Shown here: in pieces, positions 52,172-58,465 of the stretch | Position numbering within the stretch: the stretch's first letter is position 1 | Layout of the letters: each line of letters begins with the position of its first letter | Assembly: GCA_029267635.1 (NCBI GenBank) | Contig: JAJUIK010000001.1 | Location: 310,001 to 374,000 of the forward strand | DNA length: 64,000 bases | Direction: 5' to 3' | DNA from: Moraxellaceae bacterium | GTDB lineage: Bacteria; Pseudomonadota; Gammaproteobacteria; Pseudomonadales; Moraxellaceae | The notes under the pieces: generated by a model | Seen by the model: only the letters and a program-made list of their open reading frames with translations | What the model was told of the DNA's origin: nothing | Databases searched by the model: none | Made by a program: the position numbers and the translations under genes

Positions 52172-52585
52172 GTTGTTATAAACTCCGTGTTATTTATTAT
52201 GTATGACCCTTGATTAAAAGATATGCATTCGCAGTAGGAAGGACATTTAGGCTTTAGTCTTAGGTTGAATTCTGTGGAGCTGTGTATTTGATTTTTTAAA
52301 TAAATAAAATCAATATCTTATGATAGTTTTTTTGGTGTTTTTTTGCTTTTGTATCTATTCTTATCAGGGTGACGCGACAGTTCAGTTGATGCTCTTGTTA
52401 AATTGCACGTTTTGAGTTTCTCGGGTTTTTCTCGGTGAAGGAGTTTTCTCACCCGATGAACCGGTGTAAAATTCCGACTGATTTTATCTTTACCCACCGT
52501 TTTTATCTTTTGAGGTCCGTCCTCGATCATAATCTCGCGGTGACATGCTCCATGGTACGGGGCATCACTCCTTAAGGATTTTCTT
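52172..52585. other. 414-bp intergenic region holding the thrS leader
   Basis: Between the divergent acyl-CoA synthetase and thrS. The upstream half (to about 52415) is AT-rich and shows no gene. The downstream half is rich in potential RNA structure: TCGGGT (52421-52426)/ACCCGA (52451-52456); CGGTG-TAAA (52462-52470) with TTTA-CC-CACCG (52489-52499); CACCG (52495-52499) alternatively with CGGTG (52538-52542); GAGG-TCCGT-CCTC; and the anticodon-like hairpin 52545-52565. A minus-strand frame here is not credible. Confidence 0.6.
52545..52565 (+). promoter_or_regulatory. tRNA-Thr anticodon-arm mimic in the thrS leader (operator hairpin)
   Basis: ATGCTCC and GGGGCAT form a 7-bp stem (one T-G pair) with the 7-nt loop ATGGTAC. 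Read as an anticodon loop it has U at position 33, GGU (the anticodon reading ACC/ACU threonine codons) at 34-36 and A at 37. The hairpin ends 20 bases before the thrS ATG and 8 bases before its AAGGA site. In E. coli, ThrRS represses its own mRNA by binding such an anticodon-like hairpin, so the same control is likely here. Confidence 0.7.
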
Positions 52586-54508
52586 ATGCCAATTATCACT
52601 TTGCCAAATGGCGATCAAAAACAGTTCGATCAAGCGGTATCCGTGATGGACGTTGCTCAAAGCATCGGTCCTGGTCTTGCTAAAAATACCGTTGCCGGTC
52701 GTGTCAATGACCGTCTGGTGGATGCATGTGACCTGATCACCGAAGATGCCACACTGCAAATCATCACCCCAAAAGATGAAGAAGGTGTCGAGATTATTCG
52801 TCACTCGTGCGCGCACTTGGTTGGCCATGCAGTAAAGCAACTGTTCCCAGAAGCAAAAATGGTGATTGGCCCAGTTATTGAGGAAGGGTTCTACTATGAC
52901 ATCTGGATGCCACGTCCTTTCACGCTAGATGATATGGCCGCGATTGAAGAGCGCATGAAAAAGCTCATTGATCAGGACTATGATGTCATCAAAAAAATGA
53001 CTCCACGTGACGAAGTAATTGCAGAATTCACGGCGCGAGGCGAAGAATATAAATTACGCTTGATCGCAGACATGCCAAATGAAACCCAAATGGGCTTGTA
53101 CTATCATCAAGACTATTTGGATATGTGCCGCGGTCCGCACGTACCGAATACCAAATTTTTAAAATCGTTCAAGCTCACCAAAATTTCTGGCGCTTACTGG
53201 CGCGGTGATGCCAAGAATGAACAGCTGCAACGGATCTACGGTACCGCTTGGGCAGACAAGAAACAGCTTGCCGCCTATATCAAACGCATTGAAGAAGCGG
53301 AAAAACGTGACCACCGTAAAATCGGTAAGGCGCTAGACCTGTTCCACATGCAGGAAGAAGCACCGGGTATGGTGTTTTGGCATCCAAATGGCTGGACCAT
53401 TTATCAAGTGCTTGAACAATACATGCGTAAAGTGCAGCAGGAAAATGGCTATCTTGAAATCCGTACCCCGCAAGTGGTGGACTTCACCTTGTGGGAAAAA
53501 TCGGGCCATGCTGCCAACTACGCAGACAACATGTTTACCACCCATTCGGAAAACCGTAACTATGCGGTAAAACCGATGAACTGCCCGTGTCACGTGCAGG
53601 TATTCAACCAAGGCTTGAAATCTTACCGTGACTTGCCAATCCGTTTAGCCGAGTTTGGTTCATGTCACCGTAACGAACCATCAGGTTCATTACACGGGAT
53701 CATGCGTGTACGTGGCTTTACCCAAGATGACGCGCATATCTTCTGTACCAAAGAACAGATTGGTCAGGAAGTGGCAGACTTTATCAAGTTAACTTTGGAC
53801 GTTTATAAAGACTTTGGTTTTGAAGAAGTGCAAATGAAACTCTCGACACGTCCGGAAAAACGTGTGGGTGATGACGCACTTTGGGACTTGGCAGAAAAAT
53901 CTTTAGCGGATGCTTTGGATGCTGCCGGTCTAGAATGGGAGCTGCAACCAGGTGAAGGTGCATTCTATGGTCCTAAAATTGAATTCTCATTGAAAGACTG
54001 CTTGGGCCGTGTATGGCAGTGCGGTACGATTCAGTGTGACTTCAACTTGCCAGTACGCCTAGATGCTTCTTATGTGACTGAAGATAATGACCGTGATCAA
54101 CCAGTCATGTTGCACCGCGCAATTCTTGGCAGTTTTGAGCGTTTTATTGGTATACTTATTGAACACTACGCAGGCTTTATGCCGCCATGGTTGGCGCCAG
54201 TACAGGCTTGTGTCATGAATATTACTGATGCTCAAGGTGCAGCCTGTGAACAGGTAGTCGCTAAACTCAAAGAAAATGGCATTCGCGCTATTTCTGACTT
54301 GAGAAATGAGAAAATCGGCTTTAAGATTCGTGAACGTACACTCGAGCGAATTCCTTACTTATTGGTACTTGGAGACCGTGAAGTTGAGGAGGGCACCGTG
54401 AATGTCCGTACTCGCTCAGGAAAAAATTTAGGTACTATGTCAATTGATGCATTCGTTGACCTAGTGAAAGTCGCCGTAGCCGAACGCGGCCGGTACATTG
54501 TGGAGTAA
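52586..54508 (+). CDS. thrS: Threonine-tRNA ligase
   Basis: Class II synthetase charging tRNA-Thr. The 640-residue protein has a TGS domain (about 1-61), an editing N2 domain (about 62-225) with [16 protein letters not shown] and YMCRGPHV-like [11 protein letters not shown] (editing histidine and zinc-like residues), a catalytic domain (about 240-530) with [12 protein letters not shown] (catalytic zinc cysteine), [15 protein letters not shown] (motif 2) and [25 protein letters not shown] (motif 3), and an anticodon-binding domain (about 535-640). AAGGA lies 7 bases before the ATG. The stop overlaps the infC ribosome site, so the genes are cotranscribed. The leader has an autoregulatory-looking hairpin. 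Confidence 0.97.
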
Positions 54509-54513
54509 GAAAG

Positions 54514-55065
54514 ATTAAACAGCCTGACCGTAACCAGCAACAAGGTGTTAAGAGTAACCGTCCTGCGATTAACGACGAGATCCGTGCAAAAGAAGTACGC
54601 CTCGTTGCTGAGGATGGCGAACAAAAAGGGATCGTTTCTTTAGCGGAAGCGTTGCGTGCTGCAGAAGATGCTGATCTTGACCTTGTTGAGATCGTGGCCA
54701 ATGCTGAGCCACCTGTTTGTAAGATCATGGATTACAACAAGCATTTGTTTGACCTAAAGCAAAAGCAAAAAGATGCCAAGAAAAAACAGCATCAGGTGCA
54801 AGTCAAAGAAATCAAGTTACGTCCAGCAACGGATGTAGGTGATTACCAAGTGAAGTTGCGTGCTATTCTGCGTTTCTTGGAAGAAGGCAACAAAGTGAAA
54901 ATTACCTTACGTTTCCGTGGTCGTGAAATGGCGCATCAACAGCTGGGTCTAGCTCAACTGCAAAAAGTTGAAGCCGATGTGGCAGAATTTGGTGTTGTTG
55001 AACAGGCACCAAAAATGGAAGGCCGTCAAATGGGCATGTTACTTGGACCGAAAAAGAAAAAGTAA
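54514..55065 (+). CDS. infC: Translation initiation factor IF-3, AUU start
   Basis: Prevents premature 50S joining and checks start-codon/initiator-tRNA pairing. From ATT 54514 the frame encodes 183 residues, matching IF-3: an N-domain with [17 protein letters not shown] near residue 14, the linker [23 protein letters not shown] and the C-domain [23 protein letters not shown] (54502-54505) lies 8 bases before the ATT and overlaps the thrS stop region. No in-frame ATG exists before the N-domain. An AUU start, poorly used when IF-3 is abundant, is the known autoregulatory signal of infC in E. coli. rpmI does not follow directly; a terminator does. Confidence 0.95.
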
Positions 55066-55125: not shown

Positions 55126-55602
55126 TTATTGCCCTTGTGGCGCTTCGATATTTTCGGTTTGTGCAGAATTTTCAGATGAAGCTTTTTGGCCAATTGGGAT
55201 TTGTCGCGATTTCTGGCCTTCTGGAGTCACACGTTTGAGATTGATGGTTAATAGGCCATGTTCGCAGTTTGCCTGCTCTACTTCAACATGCGGATCAAGT
55301 TGTAGAGACAGTTTAAAGGAGCGGTTAGAAATCCCCTTGTATAAATACTCTGCAGTCTTGTCATTGCTTTCCTGACTGGATTTTCCGGTAATGGTCAAGA
55401 CCTGATTGTCTAGGTTGATTTCCAGATTATCGGGTGAGAAACCCGCAGCTGATACGCTGATACGATATTGGTCGTCTCCTATTTTCTCGACATTGTAGGG
55501 AGGATAATGGCTTTCACCAGGCATGATAGATTCAAATAAATCATTGAGTCGGTCAAAACCCATGTTACGTCTAAACATCGGACTTAAGTTACTGATACTC
55601 AT
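55126..55602 (-). CDS. Hsp20/alpha-crystallin small heat-shock protein (IbpA/B-like)
   Basis: Holdase chaperone that keeps unfolded proteins from irreversible aggregation. The 158-residue protein has the IbpA-like N-terminus (LSPMFRRNMGFDRLNDLFESI), an alpha-crystallin core (about 35-130: PPYNVEKIGDDQYRISVSAAGFSPDNLEI, AEYLYKGISNRSFKLSLQL with conserved GI.R.F) and HGLLTINLKR; the flexible tail has an I-P-I motif (RQIPIGQ). ATG 55602 follows AGGAGGTGAT, a full anti-Shine-Dalgarno match. The leader can fold into a three-way junction plus a hairpin over this site, and CTTGAAA, a sigma-32-like -35, lies upstream. Confidence 0.92.
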   Translation of the reverse strand: MSISNLSPMFRRNMGFDRLNDLFESIMPGESHYPPYNVEKIGDDQYRISVSAAGFSPDNLEINLDNQVLTITGKSSQESNDKTAEYLYKGISNRSFKLSLQLDPHVEVEQANCEHGLLTINLKRVTPEGQKSRQIPIGQKASSENSAQTENIEAPQGQ

Positions 55603-55604
55603 TG

Positions 55605-55700
55605 CAATCACCTCCTGATCAGGTTGGGCAAATGGTTAAAAATAAAAAATGAGGCTGAATTTCCTTGATTACCTGTAATCATTCAACTGTGAATGGCCTC
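55605..55700 (-). promoter_or_regulatory. Structured hsp20 leader, candidate RNA thermometer
   Basis: On the minus strand an outer stem GAGGC/GCCTC (plus-strand 55696-55700 and 55651-55655) encloses two hairpins, CATTCA-cagt-TGAATG (55680-55695) and GATTA-cagg-TAATC (55667-55680). Nearer the start, ACCT (55621-55624) can pair with AGGT (55610-55613) of the ribosome site with a 7-base loop. Branched leaders with a weak hairpin on the SD are typical of ROSE-type thermometers. Pairings are seen by eye; folding energies were not calculated. Confidence 0.45.
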
Positions 55701-55728
55701 TGCTTTAATATTAAAGATCTAGATTTTT

Positions 55729-55735
55729 TTTCAAG
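55729..55735 (-). promoter_or_regulatory. Possible sigma-32-type -35 element
   Basis: CTTGAAA on the minus strand, 127 bases upstream of the hsp20 ATG, matches the heat-shock sigma -35 consensus. No CCCCAT-like -10 was found at the expected spacing; an AT-rich segment occupies that position. Confidence 0.3.
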
Positions 55736-55927
55736 GGAATGCATGTTGGGATTTGTTTTGTATTGTTAAATATATGATTCTTATATCAATTAAAAATATT
55801 AAATAGATGGGATAATACTCAGAAACCCATATAGAAGCGCTGCCTACCTGCCGGGATTCATGGTATAAACACAACACAGAAGATAAAGAACAGATCAATA
55901 AAATCTGGGTAGAGATAAGGAAGCTAG

Positions 55928-56548
55928 ATGATCGATTTATATTATTGGCCGACGCCCAATGGCCATAAAATCACCATTGCCCTGGAGGAAATGGGGCTGA
56001 AATATCAAATTTTTCCGATTAATATTCAGGAAAATGACCAGTTCCAGCCCGATTTTTTAAAAATTTCGCCCAATAATAAAATCCCTGTGATTGTTGATCA
56101 GGAAGGGCCACGTGGCGAGCCGATTTCGGTGTTTGAATCGGGCGCGATCCTGCAGTATCTGGGACGTAAAACCGGACTGTTTTATCCGGAGGATGAACAG
56201 GAGCGGGTTGAAGTGGAACAGTGGCTGATGTGGCAGATGGGAAATTTTGGTCCTATGCTGGGACAAAATCACCATTTTAGCCGTTATGCACCGGAAAAAG
56301 TCCCTTATGCAATCGAGCGTTATAGTAATGAAACCAAACGCTTATATGGCGTACTCAATAAGCAATTGATCGGGCAGAAGTTTGTGGCTGGAGAATACTC
56401 GATTGCTGATATGGCGATTCTGCCTTGGGTGTTACGTCATGACTGGCAGAATATTGAGCTGGAAGATTATCCGTATGTGAAAGAATATGTAGATCGTCTC
56501 ACGATTCGTCCGGCAGTCCAAAGAGCCTTATCGATTAAAATCGCGTGA
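55928..56548 (+). CDS. yfcG: Glutathione S-transferase-like disulfide reductase (YfcG family)
   Basis: A 206-residue nu-class GST. The N-terminal thioredoxin-like domain starts MIDLYYWPTPNGHKITIALEE, with the Thr/Asn pair (PTPNG) that binds glutathione in YfcG in place of Tyr/Ser/Cys; KISPNNKIPVIVD gives the cis-proline and FESGAILQYLG the glutamate/serine contacts. The C-domain shows GPMLGQNHHFSRYAPEKVPYAIERY. In E. coli YfcG is a disulfide-bond reductase with two glutathiones. AGGAAG lies before ATG 55928. It sits in the infC-rpmI interval, divergent from hsp20. Confidence 0.92.
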   Translation: MIDLYYWPTPNGHKITIALEEMGLKYQIFPINIQENDQFQPDFLKISPNNKIPVIVDQEGPRGEPISVFESGAILQYLGRKTGLFYPEDEQERVEVEQWLMWQMGNFGPMLGQNHHFSRYAPEKVPYAIERYSNETKRLYGVLNKQLIGQKFVAGEYSIADMAILPWVLRHDWQNIELEDYPYVKEYVDRLTIRPAVQRALSIKIA

Positions 56549-56621
56549 AACCATATAAACCAATGCTTTTCCCTCGTACATAATTTGAACGAGGGCCAAG
56601 CGAAATGGCTGATATCTTTAT

Positions 56622-57380
56622 TTATGATGTGCAATGCCGCGGGTCCAGCATGATTTGGTCTTGTAAGTTGGACGGTTTATAGATCCAGAATTTACGCGGC
56701 ACATCCACTTTACTTTGTGAAATAGCTTGAATCAGCTGCTGATCGATTTTCTGATTGCCTGAACCTTTTTTGAGTTTAACCTTTTGTACTTCACCCTGTT
56801 TATTCACTTTAAAACTAAATTTGACCAAACGTGGTTTCTGTTCAAGTAAAGCAGCTTGCAGTTGTAGCGTTTTTGGTTGGCTACGATAAGAAAAAGGGAC
56901 CGATTTTTCCTTTTTTTGAGCTAACCAGTTTTTTGAAGTAAAAGTATACTGGCATACTGTTGGTGTCACAGGCATTTCTTCATTAATGAGATTCAGACTA
57001 AAAGTCTGATAGCCAATCACGGGTAATGCCACGCCATCTTGCAGATAAGGTTTAACCTGAGCCTGCATTACAGCATTTAACAACAGCTGATCGAGTTGTG
57101 CCAAACCTGTACTTTCCTGTACTGTGGCTTTACTGATCTGTCCTTCTTCATCCGTGATAATACGCACGATTGCGGCACGGTTTTGTTCTTTTAAATCTTC
57201 ATTTTTATACTGGGGTTGCGGAAATTTGTTCCACTGAATCCGGGTGGTCAGATGGGCAGGAAGTGCTGTGCTTTTTTGTATGTTGAGCTTTTTTGTTATA
57301 GTCGGCTCAGCTGCATGGAGTGTTGAAACGGCGATGCCGGACAATAAGAGCAAAGGAAGTGTTGGTTTCATAAATTTCAT
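56622..57380 (-). CDS. Periplasmic protein with two TonB-C-terminal-like domains
   Basis: A 252-residue protein with a signal peptide (LPLLLLSGIAVSTLHA, likely cleaved after HAA) rather than an N-terminal anchor, and no Pro-rich spacer. Two segments look like TonB C-terminal (TonB_C) modules: residues about 45-130 (FPQPQYKNEDLKEQNRAAIVRIITDEEGQI... LDQLLLNAVMQAQVKPY) and about 178-235 (RLVKFSFKVNKQGEVQKVKLKKGSG... LIQAISQSKVD). It has two cysteines (VCQYTF and HCTS at the end). It cannot act as a classical TonB because it lacks the ExbBD-binding helix. Function unknown. Confidence 0.75.
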   Translation of the reverse strand: MKFMKPTLPLLLLSGIAVSTLHAAEPTITKKLNIQKSTALPAHLTTRIQWNKFPQPQYKNEDLKEQNRAAIVRIITDEEGQISKATVQESTGLAQLDQLLLNAVMQAQVKPYLQDGVALPVIGYQTFSLNLINEEMPVTPTVCQYTFTSKNWLAQKKEKSVPFSYRSQPKTLQLQAALLEQKPRLVKFSFKVNKQGEVQKVKLKKGSGNQKIDQQLIQAISQSKVDVPRKFWIYKPSNLQDQIMLDPRHCTS

Positions 57381-57497
57381 GTCATTGTTTATATTCGAAG
57401 ATGTAAGATCAATGGGACAGGCCTGGATCAGGTTGCTAAGTATTCACTGATTTCAATCAGTCAGCAATAGGAATAAGCGTCCGAAGATGCCAGTCTT

Positions 57498-57662
57498 TTA
57501 TCGTGTTCTTAATGTGAGTGGATCCTTGGTCGTCTGATACCGTGAATACACCACAATGATTTCCTGAATCAGGATGGCGATGGCTAAACAGAACTGGTTA
57601 ATCGTGATGATCGAGAAATCGCGAAAGCGTAAGGCCGCAAACGCGTCATGTTGAGCAGACAT
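57498..57662 (-). pseudogene. N-terminal remnant of an MFS transporter
   Basis: A 54-codon minus-strand frame from ATG 57662 begins like many MFS exporters of the EntS/DUF894 group: AFAALRFRDFSIITINQF, then LAIAILIQEIIVVYSRYQ and TKDPLTL, where intact members go on to the GL-x-GL-x-E-A loop. Here the sequence ends after DPLTL with RTR and TAA. A few in-frame residues after the stop (GIFGRLFLLLTD) could be the end of the same gene after an internal deletion. The promoter of rpmI lies on the other side. The identification is from recall of the family N-terminus. Confidence 0.6.
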
Positions 57663-57816
57663 AAACATGCAATGGGTAGATTTTTGTGATCATTATATGC
57701 CTGAATAAAAGTGGACTTTTCAGCCAAAAACGTAAATTACCCTGAAAAAATAGGCGGATCGATCTGAACGTGTACCATTAAAATTATCCGGATATGCTTT
57801 TGTTTTATACAAACTT

Positions 57817-57824
57817 GCTATAAA
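57817..57824 (+). promoter_or_regulatory. Probable promoter of rpmI-rplT (extended -10)
   Basis: TGCTATAAA, an extended -10 (TATAAA at 57819-57824), lies 75 bases before the rpmI ATG. It would give rpmI-rplT independent transcription, needed because infC ends in a terminator 2.7 kb upstream. Confidence 0.45.
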
Positions 57825-57838
57825 ATGTCGCCTTCCTT

Positions 57839-57868
57839 ACCTGCAGGTCGTTTTTGCAATGGTGCAAA
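57839..57868 (+). promoter_or_regulatory. Palindrome and hairpin in the rpmI leader (possible L20 operator)
   Basis: ACCTGCAGGT (57839-57848) is a perfect 10-bp palindrome, and TTTGCA-ATGG-TGCAAA (57853-57868) a perfect 6-bp hairpin, both in the leader before rpmI. In E. coli, L20 represses rpmI-rplT by binding leader RNA structure; a similar role is possible but unproven. Confidence 0.4.
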
Positions 57869-57898
57869 CGTGCCGAACAGGTGCTTAAAGAGGTTGTT

Positions 57899-58093
57899 AT
57901 GGCTAAGTTAAAAACTCGCCGTGGTGCAGCTAAACGTTTCAAAGCGACTGCTAACGGTTTCAAGCGTAAACAAGCGTTCAAACGCCACATTTTGACCAAA
58001 AAATCTGCTAAGCGTATTCGTCAATTACGCGGCTGTGTAATGGTTCACGTGAGTGACGTTGCTTCAGTTCGCCGTATGTGCCCATACATCTAA
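57899..58093 (+). CDS. rpmI: 50S ribosomal protein L35
   Basis: A 64-residue basic protein, [14 protein letters not shown] at the start and [20 protein letters not shown] in the middle, typical of bL35. AAAGAGG lies just before ATG 57899; the frame is open 15 codons upstream but the extension is not part of L35. rplT starts 12 bases downstream. Normally rpmI follows infC directly; here they are 2.8 kb apart. Confidence 0.97.
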
Positions 58094-58105
58094 GGAGATT
58101 TATAA

Positions 58106-58465
58106 ATGGCTCGTGTAAAACGTGGTGTACAGGCTCATCGCCGTCATAAAAAAATTCTTGCTCGTGCTAAAGGTTACTATGGCGCGCGTTCACGTATTTA
58201 TCGTGTAGCGTTCCAAGCGGTAATCAAAGCAGGTCAATACGCTTACCGTGACCGTCGTCAGAAAAAACGTCAATTCCGTGCTCTATGGATTGCGCGTATC
58301 AACGCGGGTGCTCGTCAAAACGGTTTGTCTTACAGCCGTATGATCGATGGCTTGAAGAAAGCTCAAGTGATCATCGACCGTCGCGTACTTGCTGACATCG
58401 CTATGCATGATGCAGTGGCATTTGCTGCTTTGGCTGAGAAAGCAAAATCTGCTTTGGCTGCTTAA
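58106..58465 (+). CDS. rplT: 50S ribosomal protein L20
   Basis: A 119-residue basic protein, the family length. [30 protein letters not shown] and [26 protein letters not shown] are diagnostic of bL20, an early 23S rRNA-binding assembly protein and, in E. coli, a translational repressor of its own operon. AAGGAG precedes the ATG. A bidirectional terminator follows. Confidence 0.97.

What the first reader, a model, noticed from the sequence alone, without database searches (positions are those of the whole stretch)
52545..52565. thrS leader hairpin reproduces a tRNA-Thr (GGU) anticodon loop
The 7-bp stem and 7-nt loop AUGGUAC give U33, anticodon GGU and A37, in a loop of exactly tRNA size, ending 20 bases before the thrS start and 8 before its ribosome site. 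E. coli thrS is repressed by ThrRS binding anticodon-like operator hairpins. Here the loop mimics GGU, whereas as I recall the E. coli loop carries CGU, so the mimicry may have evolved separately in this lineage.
Basis: partly seen in the sequence, partly recalled or inferred. Interest (0 to 1): 0.6.

Follow-up and report, generated by a model that had tools for sequence, protein, structure and literature searches.

The report
Threonyl-tRNA synthetase mRNA anticodon-mimic switch
Just before the gene for the enzyme that loads threonine onto tRNA, the messenger RNA carries a small hairpin that imitates the threonine tRNA's anticodon, very probably so that the enzyme can limit its own production; it is a relative of a switch known in E. 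coli.

Summary
The hairpin is real (52545-52565): 7 pairs (one U-G), 7-nt loop AUGGUAC, 20 nt before the thrS ATG. It belongs to an operator element found across Gammaproteobacteria: A-N, 7-bp stem, loop x-U-N-G-U-R-x, CACU. A model trained without Moraxellaceae ranks it first in the window (E 0.017); in 274 genomes of the class, 90 of its 96 hits lie 6-27 nt before thrS. With hairpins chosen blind to the loop, bases 35-36 are GU in 181 of 181 leaders that have the motif (three overlapping sets, 202 examined), while base 34 is G, C, U or A (at least 13 changes on a ThrRS tree). The stem covaries. Mimicry and the operator reading are thus well supported by comparison; ThrRS binding was not tested. 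'Evolved separately in this lineage' is not supported: flanks are shared with E. coli, Pseudomonas and others, and all four NGU loops occur within Acinetobacter. What is lineage-specific lies upstream: 29 of 29 Pseudomonas leaders can form a second NGU hairpin there, whereas Acinetobacter has a different, highly conserved long hairpin. Rfam 15 shows no model for the element. New member of a known kind.

The parts
52545..52565 (+). anticodon-mimic hairpin (homologue of E. coli thrS operator domain II): stem 52545-52551 / 52559-52565, loop 52552-52558 AUGGUAC, anticodon-like GGU 52554-52556
52543..52544 (+). conserved A-N on the 5' side of the stem
   Evidence: A in 81 of 81 Acinetobacter leaders; column 3 of A1 and A2
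52566..52569 (+). conserved CACU on the 3' side of the stem
   Evidence: 81 of 81 Acinetobacter leaders (where it was also part of the score; visible unscored); columns 26-29 of A1 and A2
52495..52542 (+). upstream conserved long hairpin of Acinetobacter (position of domain IV): CACCGU 52495-52500 / GCGGUG 52537-52542; UUAU 52503-52506 / AUAA 52529-52532; UUGAGG 52510-52515 / CCUCGA 52521-52526
   Evidence: 79 of 81 leaders match the outer-stem pattern
52465..52472 (+). conserved TGTAAAAT, possible -10 region of the thrS promoter; would put the start of the mRNA roughly 105 nt before the ATG (inference)
   Evidence: pattern TGTARAAT found in 77 of 81 leaders, 107-116 nt before the ATG; the simple promoter scan did not list it
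52574..52578 (+). Shine-Dalgarno AAGGA of thrS
52586..54508 (+). thrS, threonyl-tRNA synthetase, 640 aa

Best explanation
The hairpin is the Acinetobacter copy of an ancient gammaproteobacterial thrS operator element (domain II of the E. coli operator). When ThrRS is in excess over its tRNA, its anticodon-binding domain takes the hairpin for the anticodon arm of tRNA-Thr, reading G35 and U36, and the bound enzyme keeps the 30S subunit off the Shine-Dalgarno sequence 8 nt downstream; free tRNA-Thr competes the enzyme away and relieves repression. Shown here: the structure, its conservation and covariation, invariance of G35-U36 with free base 34, its near-exclusive link to thrS, and homology with the E. 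coli element. Inferred from E. coli: ThrRS binding, repression and competition by tRNA.
For: Model R1 (41 sequences, no Moraxellaceae, E. coli included) ranks 52545-52569 first of 3 hits in the 64-kb window (15.5 bits, E 0.017; next E 1.1). Class survey: 93 of 274 genomes hit at E<=0.01, 96 places, 90 of them 6-27 nt (median 13) before thrS on its strand; the six others are the six lowest-ranked hits. Stem covariation: Moraxellaceae 6 of 7 pairs with two-sided changes, 58 two-sided cells against a shuffled mean of 14.2; other Gammaproteobacteria 5 of 7 pairs, 20 cells against 7.5. At least 13 changes of base 34 on a quick ThrRS tree, none seen at 35-36. Model R2 in 25 Acinetobacter genomes: each has the hit in its thrS leader (places inside the matches) and only one other hit at E<=0.1 appears, on the antisense strand of a long ORF. 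The ThrRS is full length, 403 identities with the 642-aa E. coli enzyme, and N502, N575, R583, R589, E600, R609 (positions recalled as anticodon contacts, from no call) are all identical. The E. coli mechanism was read in passages of PMC11088916, PMC7373986, PMC3858243 and PMC9976931.
Against: No binding or expression data. R1's E-value in the window is modest, and with strict filters the class survey missed the window's own genome; 90 of 274 genomes with a thrS-leader hit is a minority, while thrS itself was found in 256. 12 of 40 other Moraxellaceae leaders and 9 of 81 class-sample leaders lack the motif, so it is dispensable in some lineages. In 20 of 81 Acinetobacter leaders the loop-closing pair is not a standard pair, and for one of them the predicted fold has a 6-nt loop with a bulge (L161). 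U33 is not universal (76 of 81). For L009 (Pseudomonas) and L070 the minimum-energy fold does not show the 7-nt loop. The number of further pair types in A2 is not above shuffles (167 of 500 as high).
Confidence: 0.9

Rival explanations
1. The mimicry arose separately in Acinetobacter, so likeness to E. coli is convergence.
For: The loop triplet differs from E. coli (GGU against CGU).
Against: Same place, same stem and loop lengths, same A-N and CACU flanks from E. coli to Pseudomonas to Acinetobacter; neighbouring rows on the ThrRS tree have it and the rows without it are scattered (9 changes for 9 rows, shuffled mean 8.7); R1 trained without Moraxellaceae finds it.
Confidence: 0.03
2. The hairpin only keeps the ribosome site clear or protects the mRNA, and the GU in the loop has another reason (for example a ribosome or RNase contact).
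For: Hairpins upstream of ribosome sites can have such roles (general knowledge); there are no binding data for Acinetobacter.
Against: Stem sequence varies while exactly the two bases shared by threonine anticodons stay fixed and base 34 does not; nearly all hits of R1 sit at thrS.
Confidence: 0.06
3. A T-box, attenuator or other transcriptional leader acting on uncharged tRNA.
For: The gene encodes an aminoacyl-tRNA synthetase, a usual T-box target in Firmicutes (general knowledge).
Against: No Rfam family, T-box included, at gathering score anywhere in the window; no terminator-like site in 52180-52700; the loop matches an anticodon, not a codon.
Confidence: 0.01

Closest known systems
E. 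coli thrS translational operator (domains I-IV)
   Same: Same gene, same position, 7-bp stem with 7-nt loop carrying U33 and NGU; CACU after the stem; ribosome site just downstream.
   Different: Loop CGU in E. coli, GGU here; different stem sequence; different upstream hairpin. ThrRS binding is reported for E. coli (passages), only inferred here.
Anticodon arm of tRNA-Thr (GGU) of the same genome
   Same: 7-nt loop, U33, GGU, A37 (arm CTCCC-TTGGTAA-GGGAG).
   Different: Stem of 7 instead of 5 pairs, no cloverleaf; ARAGORN finds no tRNA in the window.
Yeast AspRS and HisRS mRNA anticodon mimics
   Same: A synthetase binds an anticodon-like part of its own mRNA (passages of PMC6542539).
   Different: Different enzymes and kingdoms, no homology claimed; the HisRS mimic is called putative by its authors.

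Membership tests
E. coli-type thrS operator | hairpin in the thrS leader directly upstream of the ribosome site | tested here: met
E. coli-type thrS operator | anticodon-like loop with G35 and U36 (domain II) | tested here: met
   81 of 81 in Acinetobacter
E. coli-type thrS operator | homology beyond the loop (structure model and flanks) | tested here: met
E. coli-type thrS operator | second hairpin recognised by ThrRS (domain IV) | tested here: inconclusive
   Acinetobacter has a conserved upstream hairpin, but only 5 of 81 leaders show any NGU 7-nt loop there; the E. coli leader also shows none by this test while 29 of 29 Pseudomonas do, so the test cannot decide
E. coli-type thrS operator | ThrRS with N-terminal part and anticodon-contacting residues | tested here: met
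   the residue list is recalled
E. coli-type thrS operator | ThrRS binds the leader and represses translation; tRNA-Thr competes | not testable with these tools
   needs bench work
T-box leader | match to an Rfam T-box model | tested here: not met
tRNA gene | cloverleaf found by ARAGORN | tested here: not met

The most novel reading that the evidence does not exclude
The Acinetobacter thrS operator is a re-built version: it keeps one anticodon mimic, while the second arm, which in Pseudomonas and some other relatives is a second NGU hairpin, has become a long hairpin with near-invariant internal loops and no anticodon. Either ThrRS reads that arm in a way other than through the anticodon, or another partner (30S or protein S1, for example) does, or one ThrRS dimer is held by a single mimic.
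Probability: 0.4. Interest if true: 0.5.

Novelty: new member of a known kind. Interest (0 to 1): 0.4.

Why it matters
It extends an autoregulation circuit known from E. coli to Acinetobacter and to much of the Gammaproteobacteria sampled, and nature has run a mutational scan of it: base 34 free, 35-36 fixed, stem free as long as it pairs. That matches what ThrRS would need to read, so leaders can be used to infer synthetase recognition in organisms without biochemistry. Rfam 15 gave no match to it (the second with the E. coli leader), so it is likely to go unannotated.

Tried and rejected
Separate origin in Acinetobacter: rejected. Other genes under the same element: the six class-survey hits off thrS are the lowest-ranked ones; I read 120-150 nt after each by eye, saw no thrS start and did not identify their genes. 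The second own-genome hit (G000:C24:35092-35119, 26.2 bits, E 6.8e-4) does resemble the motif (6-bp stem, 6-nt loop CUGUAA, then CAUCACUCC) but lies antisense inside a long ORF and has no counterpart at E<=0.1 in the 24 other Acinetobacter genomes searched, so I take it for chance. Rfam: no match for the window, and for eight loci including the E. coli leader only a tRNA in L009. A genus-wide search for the 7-base pattern GATATGC was far too short to say anything. A predicted pairing of the Shine-Dalgarno stretch with bases just upstream of CCACCG in the window's fold was not followed; by eye many other leaders do not share it. MAFFT alignment A3 misplaces one helix strand in the group with AATACATAATC, so the helices of the upstream hairpin were counted sequence by sequence and not with the count of structure pairs. 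The promoter scan does not list the TGTAAAAT site. Literature: the lists shown (16 of 17 papers; 20 of 134; 30 of 32; 5 of 6; 14 of 15; 8 of 34) held, by title and abstract start, no paper on a thrS operator in Acinetobacter or on base 34 across Gammaproteobacteria; most subscription journals are not in that library, one primary E. coli paper asked for was not held, and the others were not asked for.

Full report
What is there. The window lies in an Acinetobacter genome (ThrRS 98% identical to A. towneri L004). thrS starts at 52586. The hairpin ATGCTCC-ATGGTAC-GGGGCAT occupies 52545-52565, 20 nt before the ATG and 8 nt before AAGGA. All seven positions pair, one as U-G. The RNA fold of the leader contains it (z -1.76). 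Such hairpins (7 pairs, loop xUNGURx) occur three times on both strands of 64 kb and in 4 of 20000 shuffles of the 100-nt leader.

Conservation in the genus. A DNA search with window 52520-52700 matched 117 of 119 same-genus genomes, the window's own included. I fetched 80 of the 116 others, taken evenly down the ranking. All 80 and the window have A-N, the stem and CACU. Anchoring on stem pairing, A and CACU, without looking at the loop, positions 35-36 are GU in 81 of 81; position 34 is G in 31, U in 29, C in 20, A in 1; U33 in 76; position 37 is A in 70 and G in 11; there are 25 distinct 31-mers. Twenty of 81 lack a standard closing pair.

Wider conservation. 72 of these 81 have the motif; GU in 72 of 72; base 34 G53, C12, A4, U3, or G24, C12, A4, U3 among 43 distinct sequences. 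The E. coli leader has GTGATCT-TTCGTGT-GGGTCAC-CACTG. Of 40 leaders from 15 other Moraxellaceae genus codes (40 of the 87 genomes outside the genus with a thrS match), 28 have the motif, GU in 28 of 28, base 34 G11, C8, A6, U3. Shuffled leaders reach the anchoring score in 10 of 2420 cases.

Structure. In 41 distinct non-Moraxellaceae sequences 96.2% of pair cells are standard and five of seven pairs have two-sided changes (20 cells, shuffled mean 7.5). In 48 distinct Moraxellaceae sequences the figures are 96.1%, six of seven pairs and 58 cells (shuffled mean 14.2), covariation score 0.617 against 0.240; the number of further pair types is not above shuffles there (167 of 500 as high).

Homology and gene link. 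Model R1, built from the non-Moraxellaceae alignment, gives 52545-52569 as best of three hits in the window (15.5 bits, E 0.017). In a class sample it hits 93 of 274 genomes at E<=0.01; 90 of 96 places lie 6-27 nt (median 13, from the model's end to the start of the protein match) upstream of thrS; the other six (in G240, G153, G382, G122, G123, G125) are the six lowest-ranked and were only read by eye. thrS was found in 256 of the 274, so most genomes show no hit at this threshold; strict filters are part of the reason, as the window's own genome was missed too. Model R2 (Moraxellaceae) has its hit in the thrS leader in 25 of 25 Acinetobacter genomes (several are in its training set) and at one further place, in the own genome, on the antisense strand of a long, transporter-like ORF (name by eye). 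Of 13 genomes of other families of the order, 9 have a hit at E<=0.1; in the nine whose best place I read, a thrS-like start follows. On a quick ThrRS tree of 81 rows (28 of 77 inner branches weak) base 34 needs at least 13 changes, and the nine rows without motif need nine, which looks like scattered loss rather than one late gain. Hence GGU in this window and CGU in E. coli are states of one drifting base.

The enzyme. The ThrRS is 640 aa with 403 identities to the E. coli enzyme (147 of 242, 201 of 293 and 55 of 107 in E. coli residues 1-242, 243-535 and 536-642); the six residues that I recall as anticodon contacts are identical. The PDB list includes E. coli entries 1qf6 and 1kog, which I recall as the complexes with tRNA-Thr and with the operator RNA.

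Upstream arm. In 79 of 81 Acinetobacter leaders a second structure precedes the hairpin: CACCGU/GCGGUG, UUAU/AUAA and UUGAGG/CCUCGA around a loop of 3-6 nt. Among 55 distinct sequences the inner helix varies with compensation (extra pair G-C, C-G, U-A or A-U; GAGC/GCUC in one), while the outer ones hardly vary: the 3' strand GCGGUG is invariant and the 5' strand is CACCGU in 37, CGCCGU in 9 and CACCGA in 9, the last with a lost end pair. So the outer stems rest on folding more than on covariation. L192 and L193 lack the pattern. No NGU hairpin is regular there: 5 of 81, four of them a GAGGC-UGU-GCCUC hairpin read in another register. In Pseudomonas 29 of 29 leaders can form a second hairpin with an NGU 7-nt loop beginning 96-113 nt before the ATG, and L046, L067, L070 and L072-L074 have one as well (39 of 81 loci show some such hairpin, several probably by chance; this search required GU, so it says nothing on invariance). 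The minimum-energy fold of L009 does not show it, that of L070 does. The E. coli leader shows none by this test although its domain IV is reported to be recognised by ThrRS (passage of PMC11088916), so absence of NGU does not exclude binding.

Mechanism. In E. coli ThrRS binds two anticodon-like hairpins and blocks 30S binding; tRNA-Thr competes; changing the loop to the methionine anticodon hands control to MetRS (passages read: PMC11088916; PMC7373986; PMC9976931; PMC3858243). The same reading fits here. Binding, repression and competition are inferred.

Novelty. The kind is known; I found no description of this member, or of the class-wide pattern of a free base 34 with fixed 35-36, in the lists that my searches showed (titles and abstract starts, some lists capped) or in the passages read, from a library that lacks most subscription journals. 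Rfam 15 gave no match.

Noticed in passing
window 54514-55065: infC follows thrS and appears to start with ATT (54514), in frame with the TTG ORF listed at 54652; an AUU start of infC is what I recall for E. coli.
   Followed up: partly
window 55126-58465: infC and rpmI-rplT are separated by unrelated genes (a small heat-shock-like protein on the minus strand, a glutathione S-transferase-like ORF and a TonB-like ORF; names by eye).
   Followed up: no
L071 917-1000 and L277 (G528:C1:549579-549643): Two copies of the motif stand in tandem before thrS in an Oceanospirillales assembly and in a genome of the window's order, as if two mimics were wanted.
   Followed up: partly
G000:C24:35092-35119 (in L276): A second place in the own genome resembles the hairpin (6-bp stem, loop CUGUAA, CAUCACUCC after it) on the antisense strand of a transporter-like ORF; taken for chance.
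   Followed up: partly
L013, L023, L024 (Psychrobacter; L026 less clearly): A TATAAT-like box lies so close to the hairpin that there seems to be no room for an upstream arm; loop position 37 is U here.
   Followed up: no
L192 and L193: Two Acinetobacter leaders have lost the upstream CACCG arm but keep GCGGTGA before the hairpin, so that stretch seems constrained for another reason than pairing with CACCG.
   Followed up: no
L236-L241, L243, L244, L013: Outside Acinetobacter a lower helix (GGUAG or GCGGU with CURCC or ACUGC, by eye) can close below the conserved CACU; the folds of L013 and of the E. coli leader show such lower helices.
   Followed up: partly
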